Below, piece after piece: positions 13,674 through 18,922 of a stretch of DNA of 64,000 nucleotides. Numbering within the stretch: the first letter of the stretch is position 1; each line of letters begins with the position of its first letter. The translations under genes were made by a program, and so were the position numbers. Below the pieces are notes generated by a model. The model made no database searches and was not told the origin of the DNA. It was given only the letters and a program-made list of their open reading frames with translations. Source of the stretch: Antennarius striatus (lineage: Eukaryota; Chordata; Actinopteri; Lophiiformes; Antennariidae); NCBI RefSeq assembly GCF_040054535.1, contig NC_090784.1:17521001-17585000 (forward strand), in the 5' to 3' direction.

Positions 13674-16600
13674 ATGATGGCAACAATCAGCGTGATTGCA
13701 TTCAGCCTTCTGCTCACCACAGGTGAGTTCCTCAAGACACTTTATTACGTTTAGTTATTGCAAAGAGTTATGATATCAGAAAGGACACTTTTAATATGAA
13801 TTTTTTTTCTTTCTTTTTTGTTTACAGCTCTTTCTGCCCCTGTGAAAAGTAAGCCTTGATGATCTAGTGCGTCACAGAGTGGACTCATGAAATATCAAAT
13901 ATATATGTGAATATGTAACAAATGTGTCGATGCTTCTTCCTTCCTCTACCCGTGGTCACCCTCCAGCCAATGAGCAGTCCATGACCTTGTTCCATGGGGA
14001 GGATTTCCACATCTTTCTGCCCTCGCTCATGTTTGAGATCACCTTTCGGAACAGGTCTTCTCCACGGTCGCCAGATGTGGTCCTGATGAGGGACGGCATC
14101 GTGTTCAACGGTCGCGCCAAACTCAACCGCTACCTCAGCCATCTGGTCATAGATGCTGTGGGTGAGGGAGATGAGGGTCTGTACACCGTGAAGAACTCAG
14201 ACAACCCTGAGGACATCAGACACATCACGCTTATAGTTCGAGGTACTGGATGCAATGAGTGTATGGCACATGAGGACTGGTAATTTACTATAGTCTAACC
14301 TCCTATTTTACTCTCCTAGGAAGAATTTAAAATCATCTGGAGTTTATTATTATTTGCACTAAATTCCATTTCTAATGACTTCATCTAATCCTAATCCTAC
14401 ATTGTTACTTTACAAGTTTAACAGCATTATATTTGTTTGATAATGGCATTATAAATTGTGTTTTATAAACTAAAATGAGATATAAATATGCATGTTTCTG
14501 TTTGAAGAGAAGATTTACTTTGCTGCAAACTCTTAACTTCTTCAAACATTCAATGTTGAGTTTGAAGTAAAGCAGCAACTATCATCATTTATTTTTGTTA
14601 TCAGTTAATCTTCCTGGATGACATCAGAGTCGCCGCCTCAAGGTGAAGAAGAAGCTTCTTTCTCCTGCTTTAATCATGCGGTCAGCAGCAGAACAAACCT
14701 TTCAGTAACACATCCTGTTGGTTCAAAGTGTTTGCTTTGAACTATTAATTCTGATTCTGACTAGATTAGACACGAAGCCTCACACACACAGAAACTTGAG
14801 AGACGGATGGAGTGATTTAAACATCCAGAAGGAGGAGTGGGCTCAATCCCAGCATGGATAAAGGCAACTGTAGTGTTGCGATATGTGGATATGGGGGGAG
14901 TAATGTGCTGTGATGTCTGTGTCGAGAGCATGCTGGAGCTGCCAGCCAGTAATTATGCAGCTTATTATACACCAACCCACTCCTCTTTCCTTTCCTCCCT
15001 ACTGTTTTCCTGTCTTTATCTTGTCTTTACCGTCTTTCTTTCTGTAGTTCTGTCCCTACCCTTTCATTTCTTTGCCCATACATTGCTAGATCAGTTCTCT
15101 TTCTCTTCAATCTGCCCCCCCCTCTTTGTCACATTTTTCTTCATCTTCCTCTCTTAACCTCATTCTTTCTCCATCTCTTTTCCTCTCACATGCTTTCTTT
15201 TTCTCTCGTATTGGTCCTTTCTGTCACTGAAACCTTTATCTGTACTCATTATTACTTCATTCCTTTCCATTTCTGGCTGGTTTTATTGCTTTGAGTCCTT
15301 TTCCTCAAGAATAAACACTTTACCTCCCTGTTTTTTACTGTCTAGACTGCTCCCATGAGCAGATCATTAAATATGGAGAAAACTACCACATTCCATTGTT
15401 AGGAGTGACTCCTCCTATCACCCTGGAGTACAAGCCCAGTGCTGTGGAGGCCAACCAGACATCCAGGTAGAGTCAGCAAAATCACACGGATATTTAATCG
15501 CAATCCAATCGAAAAGTTGAGGAAAGTTTACACTTTTTGACTCCTGCAGACCTGCTCTGGTGCTGCTGACCATGACAGGGACGTCCATTGAGGGCTACCA
15601 GGGCCGAATCAGCGTCACTGACCGTCATGTGACCCTCAGTGATGTCACCGGTGCCGATGAGGGCAGTTACACCGTCAGTGATTTCAAAGGTGCCGTCCGA
15701 AGGAAAGTGTGTCTCAATGTCAGAGGTGAGACAGGTTGTATATTCTTTCCTCTTCCATGCTTCACCTGTTTTAATTGACCAGCAGCACCTTCCATCAGGA
15801 TGTTGTCGTTTCCATCCCAGTTGTAACGCTCCTTTTGTCGGCCATAATGGCTTTTTAAAGACCCAAACGTTAATGGACTCCAACAGGCTAATGCATTTTA
15901 TATGATCAGCGGTGGAAAAAAAGCATCGTATTTATTTCATGTCCGTCGTCCACCTCTGTCTGTTTTAGAGCACCAGAACTTTGTGACCCTACCATATGGT
16001 AAAAGACTGAAGATCAACCTGATACTCAACAGCACCTTGGTTCACCTCTACTATATGTCTGATAATGACCCCAAATCCCACCTGCTGCTGGACAGAGGAG
16101 AATTCACCAGTGTAAATGGAGCATCTTATTTTTCCCACCACTATTGTGATAATTTTTTTGCCTGCATTTTACAACAGAGACAGAAAATAAATATCAAAAG
16201 AACGACTTTATTTTGTACTGCATATTGTATGTGTTAGAAAAAGCACATGTGATATGACCATTAATAGCTAATATACTTTTTTGTCTACAAACCTAATACC
16301 AGGATGGTCTGACAGTATTTGATAGCAGTTGGTCACACTGTCTGAAATAAGGAGCGCCCAGACAGACGTCACAAATATTTGATTTGCTTTTTCATAATAT
16401 AAAATTACCTAGAGGTAAACCAGCAGCAATGATTTATGAACATTACCAATCAAAGTTTGGACAGTGTCAAATGGATATAAAAACATTATATTTGATTTCT
16501 TCCTTTGATCAGATTTAAAGTGGATTGCAAGATGTAATGAGATCTGGAGGGCACTTACACACAGTGTAACATGGAATAATACTTAGTACACTAATGTGTC

Positions 16601-18922
16601 CTTAATAATTAAAGACAAAATACAGATATTCACATTTATCAACAACACAGTTATCTCCGTTATTCACCAACTTTGCTCCAGTATGTTTCCATAAGTTATC
16701 ATCAAATGAAAGCAGTTGTTAGTTATTATGTGTTTTGTTTTAAATTGTATCTATTTATATTCTATTTGTATTCCTCGGTTTTTCAGTTATTTCTGTTTTT
16801 TTTTCCTTCGAGGCGGTGACTGAACTGGGTCTGGAGAATCGCCTCTCCGTTGATGGATCACTGGTTTTCCTGGATGAGGTCAAGCGTTCGGATGCAGGCC
16901 AGTTCAAAGTTACCGACCTCCAGAATTTCACAGTGTCCCGCATCCACCTGGAAGTACAACGTAAGAATGGGAGTGGGGCTGAAAAGGAATTGTTGAACCC
17001 CGTCTCCCTTTTCTTCTATCAAACTCCTCTCTTTTCACTTCTTTGTTAATTCAATGGAATCTGAGCAATTCAATGAAAGGTCAGTTGAATTATCGACTAT
17101 CCCAATCCTGTCCTTCTTTCCATTTCCCCCCGTTGCTTCCTTGCAGCCTACAAGCTGGAGACACTCTATGTGGCCATCATTGCCCTTTTGGGCCTACTGG
17201 TTTTCCTTCTGTTGGTTTGTCTGCTGTCCTGCTTGATCAGAATAAAGAAGAGAGCCAAGAGGGCTGCTGCCCTGGAGAAGATCGCCAAAAATGCCGGCAA
17301 AGATGATGAGGGAGAGGCTTTCAGACAGGTTGGAGGGACAGCTGACAATGTGGAGATGATGATGATGTTGATGATGATGATGATGATGATGTTCTAATAT
17401 TTTATATGTATACAATCAATGACTGTTTGGTGTGCCTTTTCACAGGTGGTGAAGAATATCACCAAACTCAGTGAGGAATCCAAGCATTCCCAGGCAGACA
17501 CTACAGAGAAATCTCAGAGCACCGAGGTTGACATTAAAGTAAGGATATGTGATATTTCTTTGCTTTAGGCAGACTCTCTGTTAGGTTTTAATGACGTCTC
17601 CATTTTTATGCTGTTCTCTGCGTTCAGAAAGCTGCAGCTTATTCAGAACGATGCTACTTGACTCCCCTCTAAGATCGACAAAGCGGATCACGTCAGTCCA
17701 GGTCTCAGGTCTTTGCAGTGGTTTCCTGTGTGAAAAGCAAATCATTTTTTATGATGCTAATATTAGTTGATGAAGCTCTGAATGGTTTAGGGCCAAAACA
17801 CATTTCCGATCTCCTGCTATGTCATGAACCCTTCTCAGGTCTTTTGGGACAGGTCTGTTCAATTTCTCTCAAGTGAAAACTAAAGAAGCAACATTTTGCA
17901 GAACTCCCAGAAAACCTGTTCCAATCCTCAGTTATTTTAAATCTTTTTAAACTTCTGCTTGCCTCTGCTTTTTATGAAATAAAATTTGAAACTGTTGATT
18001 CCCGTATTGCCCTGCACTGTAGTTGAATTTTGACTTTTATTCTTCTGTTTTATTCAATTGTAGCCTCCTGACAGCCTGCATTGTATTGACTCCTTTTACA
18101 ACTTGGTTAAATGTTATCTTTATATTTCCTTGTATGTCTTTTATGTCTTTTTTTATCGTTTTTACGTCATCTGTGAACCTATTGATTTGTCTTGGTGAAA
18201 TGTGCCATACAAACACACTTTGTTGTCTGTTGAAGGGTCTGGAGGTTTCCTCTAAAGAAGTTGGGATCAACAATCTAGAGACCAGTGACTCTGGCGTTGG
18301 CTTTAACACCGCCCTCCCACTGGACACTGACACTGATGCCCCCGATCAAATGTCCGAGTCTGCAGCTGTAACTGTCTCTGTTGCCCCTGAGACCAAATCA
18401 AGTCCTCCAACTGTTGCCGAGTCACAGCCAAGTGCTCCACCTACTGCAGAAATGAAGCCCAGTCCTGTAGCCGACACTAAACTATCCCCAGTACCTGAGA
18501 CCAAGACGATTCCTGAACAGCCAGAGAAAGCAAAGATGGACGTGTCCAAACCAGCAGATGTTAAGCTTAGCCCAGCCCCGAGTCCTGAGCCCAGAGCTAG
18601 TCTGACTACAGCTGATCCAAAGCCTGCATCCAGTCCAAACCCAGAGCCTAAATCAACTGCTCCTAAAGCCACCACTGCAGCACCTGGAGCTAAGAGCGCC
18701 CTGACTCCCACACCTGAGCCCCCCAAACCGACCACACCAGAACCGATAACCAACGGTACACCTGAGCCAGGCAAGCCAAGCCCGGATCACACTGATGTTA
18801 TTGGAGTCTCTCCTAAAGCGGCCGCACCCAAAACCCCTGATGTAGAATTGAAGTCTAGCGGTGCTGCACTGGAGGCCAAGAAAGATGGTGTTGTTGCTGA
18901 GGATTCAACAACCACCACTTGA
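13674..18922 (+). CDS. single-pass receptor with three cysteine-less Ig-like domains and Pro-rich tail (unnamed)
   Basis: Exons 13663-13722 (ATG 13674), 13828-13848, 13967-14242, 15346-15466, 15550-15725, 15969-16111, 16813-16960, 17147-17328, 17446-17538, 18236-18922 join in frame to 631 residues. A signal peptide (IAFSLLLTTALSA) is followed by three Ig-like domains of ~92, ~99 and ~97 residues. Each has the late D-x-G-x-(Y/F) turn (DEGLYTV, DEGSYTV, DAGQFKV), but the usual F-strand cysteine is Val and the B-strand cysteine is absent too. Domain borders are phase 1, as in Ig genes; domains 2 and 3 each carry an internal intron. A membrane segment (LYVAIIALLGLLVFLLLVCL) is followed by a basic stop-transfer (RIKKRAKR). 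The ~330-residue tail has no tyrosine and is rich in Pro/Ser/Thr/Lys-Glu (PEPK-type) repeats; SDSGVGF is a conspicuous motif. Its role is unknown; surface adhesion or recognition is an inference. Splice sites are all GT-AG. Confidence 0.85.
13828..13848 (+). other. 21-nt microexon of the Ig-like receptor gene
   Basis: TTTACAG acceptor, 21 bases, then a GTAAGC donor. It encodes the end of the signal peptide region (ALSAPVK) and keeps phase 1 on both sides, so skipping it would remove seven residues without changing frame. Confidence 0.75.
17354..17392. repeat. (GAT)n trinucleotide repeat just after an exon
   Basis: An imperfect GAT/ATG run begins 25 bases after the donor of the transmembrane exon (GTTGGA at 17329), inside the 117-base intron that precedes exon 17446-17538. 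Confidence 0.85.
17620..18225 (+). mobile_element. decayed L2/CR1-type LINE fragment in intron
   Basis: Translation fragments around 17630-17850 (KLQLIQN-like, then DEALNGLGPKHISDLLC) resemble the end of the fish L2/Maui-type reverse transcriptase ORF, where a 'FKALNGLAPxYLSDLL' stretch is typical. Stops and frameshifts are frequent. The stretch ends near 'GTGAAATGTGCCATACAAAC', like the usual L2 3' end. The family call is from memory of the motif. Confidence 0.5.

What the first reader, a model, noticed from the sequence alone, without database searches (positions are those of the whole stretch)
13967..16960. Three tandem Ig-like domains that all lack the canonical disulfide cysteines
Each domain keeps the D-x-G-x-(Y/F) turn that normally precedes the F-strand cysteine, but reads DEGLYTV, DEGSYTV and DAGQFKV. 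The B-strand cysteine is missing as well. Only isolated cysteines remain (DCSHEQ, VCLNV). A whole ectodomain built of disulfide-free Ig folds on a type I receptor is unusual and points to a fish-specific family, here next to MHC-region genes.
Basis: partly seen in the sequence, partly recalled or inferred. Interest (0 to 1): 0.75.

Follow-up and report, generated by a model that had tools for sequence, protein, structure and literature searches.

The report
Fish receptor with rewired Ig domains
A little-studied fish cell-surface protein is built of three antibody-like modules that have all lost the sulfur bridge that normally pins such modules together, and its relatives keep one unusual pair of cysteines in the middle module that probably makes a bridge in a different place.

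Summary
The interval runs exactly from exon 3 to exon 7 of a 10-exon gene (13674-18922, +). Its 631-residue product is identical to the NCBI entry 'uncharacterized protein si:dkeyp-77h1.4' of Antennarius striatus. Three confidently predicted V-like Ig domains all lack the canonical pin: Leu for the B-strand Cys, Val for the F-strand Cys, Phe/Tyr for the C-strand Trp. Over 302 aligned rows, no residue at the six B/F positions (287-298 residues each) is Cys, so the loss is family-wide. Every organism named in the hit lists is a teleost. The correction: the 'isolated' cysteines are not isolated. C117 (start of D2) and C210 (G strand of D2) lie in one domain and occur together in 288 of 289 rows covering both, including a paralogue on another chromosome. 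The likeliest reading is one non-canonical A-to-G-strand disulfide in D2, a natural counterpart of pairs engineered to rescue antibody domains lacking the normal bond. No coordinates were available, so the distance was not measured. Function is untested; an adhesion or counter-receptor role is inferred. By the features tested it is not a CD2/SLAM or IL-1R family member.

The parts
13674..13722 (+). exon 1, start codon and signal-peptide start
   Evidence: splice model; product identical to P0001
13828..13848 (+). exon 2 (end of the signal-peptide region)
13967..14242 (+). exon 3 = nearly the whole of Ig-like domain D1 (residues 24-115); DEGLYTV at 14170-14190; B-position L41, C-strand F50, F-position V98
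   Evidence: D1 model pLDDT 95.2
15346..15466 (+). exon 4, first part of D2 with C117 (codon 15348-15350), B-position L133, C-strand Y144
15550..15725 (+). exon 5, second part of D2; DEGSYTV 15656-15676, F-position V198; C210 (codon 15710-15712) in the G strand
15969..16111 (+). exon 6, first part of D3; B-position L232, C-strand Y243
16112..16812 (+). phase-0 intron inside D3, absent from the paralogue, whose D3 is one exon
16813..16960 (+). exon 7, second part of D3; DAGQFKV 16891-16911, F-position V295
17147..17328 (+). exon 8, hydrophobic helix read as transmembrane (residues about 317-341, codons 17161-17235) with invariant C336/C340 near its cytosolic end, and basic juxtamembrane
17446..17538 (+). 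exon 9, highly conserved proximal cytosolic segment
18236..18922 (+). exon 10, conserved SDSGV.F...PLD.DTD stretch, then Pro/Ser/Thr-rich tail of low predicted order, stop codon 18920-18922

Best explanation
This is the teleost gene si:dkeyp-77h1.4, one of an old pair of paralogues. It encodes a type I surface protein with three tandem V-like Ig domains, one TM helix and a long, probably disordered Pro/Ser/Thr-rich tail. In all three domains the usual Cys-Cys-Trp core is replaced by a hydrophobic and aromatic core (mostly Leu/Val, Val/Ile, Phe/Tyr), which is shown. In D2 the lost B-F bond is probably replaced by a single bond between C117 (start of A) and C210 (G strand), tying the first and last strands of the middle domain. 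The conservation is shown; the bond is inferred. It most likely works as an adhesion or counter-receptor whose more variable ectodomain binds a partner and whose strongly conserved TM and proximal tail anchor or signal by a route that uses no tyrosine motif in this gene. That role is inferred only.
Against: The C117-C210 distance could not be measured, because no coordinates are returned. Of the 15 rows that start at 118, ten begin at other chain numbers (8, 8, 8, 9, 10, 11, 5, and 29, 31, 36 in other numbering), so the place of C117 is good to a residue or two at best. By strand counting I place C210 about 2-3 residues below the best engineered partner of position 6, so the bond needs slack at the start of D2. 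In PMC10641266 only Cys6-Cys119 of the A-G pairs was confirmed by mass spectrometry; Cys4-Cys118 and Cys5-Cys120 had minor effects on stability. Free thiols or an interchain bond are not excluded. I found no ligand, localisation or binding data. The expression record (PMC7918649) is a gill transcriptome comparison, not a function. The tail is about as conserved as the ectodomain on average (0.72); only its first part is nearly invariant.
Confidence: 0.6

Rival explanations
1. C117 and C210 make disulfides between two molecules, so the protein is a covalent dimer and each Ig domain really is disulfide-free.
For: Both cysteines are invariant; strand counting leaves their distance within one domain uncertain.
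Against: The two sit in the same domain, on strands that neighbour each other in V domains, and A-G pairs are tolerated in V domains (PMC10641266). Two invariant cysteines with no conserved third partner fit one intradomain bond most simply.
Confidence: 0.2
2. The cysteines are free or redox-active and the ectodomain carries no disulfide.
For: Hydrophobic cores in all three domains could suffice without a bond; CD2 is named as an exception to the B-F bond (PMC12051499, passage).
Against: Joint conservation in 288 of 289 rows across two paralogues and teleosts from eels to frogfish.
Confidence: 0.12
3. It is a divergent fish member of the CD2/SLAM family, whose first domain also lacks the bond.
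For: Foldseek places chains of 2B4, CD2, CD2-CD58 and 2B4-CD48 entries in 7 of the first 12 rows for D1; CD48 appears weakly in the profile search (E 0.012).
Against: Three Ig domains, not two (recalled for the family); D2 lacks the canonical bond; no tyrosine switch motif in the tails; VIA-align ranks CAR, SCN4B and NEGR1 level with or above 2B4, in tied rows, so the fold does not single out CD2 relatives.
Confidence: 0.1
4. It is a pseudogene or a decaying gene that has lost its cysteines.
For: None found.
Against: All 10 exons are open with GT/AG splice sites; full-length orthologues up to 79-81% identical in other fish; TM and proximal tail nearly invariant.
Confidence: 0.01

Closest known systems
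si:dkeyp-77h1.4 (zebrafish-style placeholder name; uncharacterized)
   Same: The window protein is identical to the Antennarius striatus entry of this name.
   Different: Nothing; the name carries no function. One full-text search (open-licence PMC papers only) found two papers naming it, which call it 'unknown' and 'Uncharacterized' (passages).
Canonical V-set / I-set Ig domains (JAML, CAR, NEGR1, antibody V domains)
   Same: Fold and D-x-G-x-Y/F corner.
   Different: Cys-Cys-Trp core absent in all three domains; Pfam Ig models stay below the curated cut-off for this protein.
CD2/SLAM family first domains (CD2, CD58, CD48, 2B4) and CEACAM first domains
   Same: V-like domain without the B-F bond (CD2: PMC12051499, passage; the others recalled); D1 fold match.
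   Different: There the loss concerns the first domain only (recalled); here all three domains, with a conserved extra pair in D2; no SLAM-type tail motif.
Engineered A-G disulfides in VH/VHH (Cys4-Cys118, Cys5-Cys120, Cys6-Cys119)
   Same: Cysteines on strands A and G of a V-type domain that lacks the canonical bond (PMC10641266, abstract and passages).
   Different: Laboratory-made, and reported absent from the human VH repertoires studied there; here natural and invariant in a teleost family, with C210 estimated a few residues further down strand G.
IL-1 receptor family
   Same: Three Ig domains and one TM (PMC6596353, passages); IL1RAPL1 is Foldseek rank 2 for the whole model, though with TM-score 0.15-0.23 and rmsd 14.5; an extra A-G disulfide in IL-1R1 D1 is recalled, not checked.
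   Different: No TIR domain among Pfam matches; canonical bonds missing.

Membership tests
si:dkeyp-77h1.4 orthologue group | End-to-end identity with the annotated protein | tested here: met
   631 of 631 residues identical to P0001
Ig superfamily (fold) | Ig beta-sandwich fold | tested here: met
   predicted models only
Ig superfamily (fold) | D-x-G-x-(Y/F) corner before strand F | tested here: met
   all three domains
Canonical V-set/I-set sequence families | Cys on strands B and F | tested here: not met
   0 Cys at six positions over 302 rows
Canonical V-set/I-set sequence families | Trp on strand C | tested here: not met
   F50, Y144, Y243; W in 1 of 873 cells at the three positions
Canonical V-set/I-set sequence families | Pfam curated cut-off | tested here: not met
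   V-set 19.4 against 26 bits, I-set 16.8 against 23.7; some relatives carry a precomputed V-set or I-set hit
CD2/SLAM family | First domain without B-F disulfide | tested here: met
CD2/SLAM family | Second, C2-type domain with the canonical disulfide (recalled) | tested here: not met
   L133 and V198 in D2
CD2/SLAM family | Tyrosine switch motif in the tail (SLAM members; recalled) | tested here: not met
   0 of 120 tails of this gene and 0 of 103 of the paralogue group match [ILVST].Y..[ILV] (17 of 120 paralogue rows dropped for short or unrecognised tails)
IL-1 receptor family | Cytosolic TIR domain (absent in decoys) | tested here: not met
   no TIR match in the Pfam scan of all 631 residues
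IL-1 receptor family | Three Ig domains, one TM | tested here: met
   predicted model

The most novel reading that the evidence does not exclude
A whole teleost receptor family, present from eels to frogfish, has deleted the Cys-Cys-Trp pin from three tandem V-like Ig domains and kept exactly one natural A-to-G-strand disulfide in the middle domain. It would be a natural solution to Ig folding that I otherwise saw described only as an antibody-engineering device for V domains.
Probability: 0.6. Interest if true: 0.65.

Novelty: new variant of a known kind. Interest (0 to 1): 0.5.

Why it matters
The B-F disulfide is treated as the anchor of the canonical Ig fold and its numbering (PMC12051499, passages). 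A conserved family in which three consecutive extracellular domains do without it, with one replacement pair, gives a natural test of how Ig domains stay stable outside the cell and a template for designing them. The gene is also an orphan in an MHC-type neighbourhood, listed as positively selected in two branches of annual Nothobranchius killifishes (PMC5418189, Table 1) and as 494-fold higher in gills of Antarctic notothenioids (PMC7918649, Table 1), so its function is worth finding.

Tried and rejected
The Pfam scan gave only sub-cut-off Ig matches and the single-sequence PDB search nothing below E 0.3; profiles reached Ig chains. A search for an A-G precedent by aligning D2 to PDB sequences showed only partial stretches; a VEGFR2 Ig domain (chain 10ri_C sequence, near residue 636) carries a Cys 12 residues after its F-strand Cys, as C210 lies 12 after V198, but its partner was not checked. 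Literature searches for disulfide-free Ig ectodomains and for A-G bonds in the IL-1R family (passages of PMC6596353) gave no direct statement of a natural one; a further search led to PMC10641266. Passages of PMC3664923, PMC11969063 and PMC2846915 had nothing on this gene. Two searches concerned a neighbour. Synteny of the C14 paralogue with the window within about 50 kb either side: only transposon or simple-repeat matches, one short weak match and the gene itself, so neighbours do not support a duplicated block. The tree (35 of 302 rows) puts the anchovy Engraulis with this gene's group and eels, a halosaur, the anchovy Coilia, Denticeps, cypriniforms, a characin, an electric eel and a whitefish with the other; this dates the duplication early but does not prove whole-genome duplication, and the Engraulis branch is long. 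Considered and rejected: pseudogene, CD2/SLAM member, IL-1R member.

The VIA-align lists do not exclude any family.
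Full report
What is there. The window is a stretch of contig C9 of a 548-Mb genome. Its spliced gene at 13674-18922 on the + strand gives a 631-residue protein identical, letter for letter, to the NCBI entry 'uncharacterized protein si:dkeyp-77h1.4 [Antennarius striatus]', so the host is most likely the striated frogfish. D1 is one exon; D2 and D3 are each split by an intron.

The loss. Relative to a canonical Ig domain the three domains read L41/V98/F50, L133/V198/Y144 and L232/V295/Y243 at the B-Cys, F-Cys and C-strand Trp positions, and the ectodomain contains no Trp at all. I aligned the 301 proteins listed by three database searches (isoforms and fragments included) plus the frogfish paralogue. 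At the six B and F positions there are 0 Cys in 287, 290, 290, 298, 293 and 288 residues. The replacement is orderly: mostly Leu, Val or Ile on B, mostly Val or Ile on F, mostly Phe or Tyr on C (with W in 1 and C in 2 of 873 cells there). This is a family feature, not decay in one species. The canonical Cys-Cys-Trp(-Leu) anchor, and CD2 as an exception to the bond, are stated in PMC12051499 (passages).

The pair that is not isolated. Among rows that hold the relevant exon, C117 is present in 289 of 290 and C210 in 295 of 296; both in 288 of 289 rows covering both. Thirteen of the 302 rows lack one or both. I read all thirteen: in each the exon is missing, cut short or misread into an intron, and none shows a substitution in a properly read exon. 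Of the 289 rows, 248 have no other ectodomain cysteine. The paralogue on C14, 43.5% identical in the ectodomain, has the same two. Two invariant extracellular cysteines in one domain, with no conserved third partner, point to one disulfide between them.

Could they bond? AlphaFold2 gives three confident beta sandwiches (pLDDT dips to 71-83 only at residues 141-160), with strand A of D2 at 119-124 and G at 205-214, but the tool returns no coordinates, so I could not measure the distance. Of the 15 rows of the structural comparison that start at model residue 118, five begin at chain residue 7 and the rest at other numbers; together with the 16-residue spacing to the B position this puts C117 near V-domain position 6, give or take a residue or two. 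A screen of Cys pairs on neighbouring strands in a VH without Cys23-Cys104 recovered A-G pairs 4-118, 5-120 and 6-119; only 6-119 gave a large stability gain and was confirmed by mass spectrometry; such pairs were absent from the human VH repertoires studied (PMC10641266, abstract and passages). By counting along the F-G hairpin I estimate C210 at about position 122 or 123, 2-3 residues below the best engineered partner. That keeps the bond plausible but unproven.

Distribution. Every organism named in the rows shown is a teleost as far as I know the names, from eels to frogfish. Two groups exist, found on C9 and C14 of this genome; the D1 search and the TM/tail search each found only these two loci, while a D2-D3 search did not complete. 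A tree of 35 of the 302 rows separates the two groups with full support: the anchovy Engraulis joins the window gene's group; eels, a halosaur, the anchovy Coilia, Denticeps, cypriniforms, a characin, an electric eel and a whitefish join the other; percomorphs are in both. The duplication is thus probably early in teleosts, with the caution that the Engraulis branch is long. Neighbours within 50 kb of C14 do not match the window.

Function, inferred. Across 120 orthologues the mean share of rows with this protein's residue is 0.64-0.73 in D1-D3, 0.89 in the TM and juxtamembrane stretch and 0.72 in the tail; the first part of the tail, with SDSGV.F...PLD.DTD, is nearly invariant. Two cysteines near the cytosolic end of the TM are present in all 120, which would suit palmitoylation (inference). 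In this gene's orthologues 117 of 120 tails have no tyrosine; in the other group 103 of 103 tails examined (17 of 120 dropped as short or unrecognised) have two to five, but none in either group fits an ITIM/ITSM-like pattern. I read this as an adhesion or counter-receptor whose tail works by scaffolding or Ser/Thr phosphorylation. The two papers found that name the gene (passages) list it as 494-fold higher in gills of Antarctic notothenioids than of other Eupercaria, function 'unknown' (PMC7918649), and as positively selected in two branches of Nothobranchius, 'Uncharacterized' (PMC5418189).

Setting. Upstream lies MDC1 (BRCT exon, E 3.7e-27 to a solved MDC1 chain), downstream a valyl-tRNA synthetase (best matches of three exons, below the cut-off set for whole proteins) and, on the other strand near 61.4-64.0 kb, Ig exons with ordinary cysteines.

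Noticed in passing
window 16112-16812 and 15467-15549; L003 3039-3358 and 4058-4345: The D3 intron of this gene is absent in the paralogue, and the D2 intron lies about 11 codons apart in the two copies although both split an Arg codon in phase 2; intron relocation or loss and gain since duplication.
   Followed up: partly
window 17500-18400 (residues about 395-440): A cytosolic stretch, STEV.IKGLEVS ... SDSGV.F ... PLD.DTD, is strongly conserved in both paralogue groups although the tail has low predicted order; no known motif assigned.
   Followed up: partly
window 31281-34911 +: Long open frames, possibly exons of one unknown gene next to the valyl-tRNA synthetase gene; the three tested match no Pfam family at E 0.01.
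   Followed up: no
window 61407-63940 -: Two Ig exons with canonical cysteines (LTC...YIC; LEC...YTC); they resemble fish G6f-like, a name recalled and not tested.
   Followed up: partly
window 36011-37147 +: A LINE-type reverse transcriptase frame (Pfam RVT_1, E 2.7e-28), with close copies on C14.
   Followed up: no
orthologues of the window gene: PMC7918649 Table 1 lists dkeyp-77h1.4 as 494-fold up in Antarctic notothenioid gills; a striking and unexplained expression change.
   Followed up: partly
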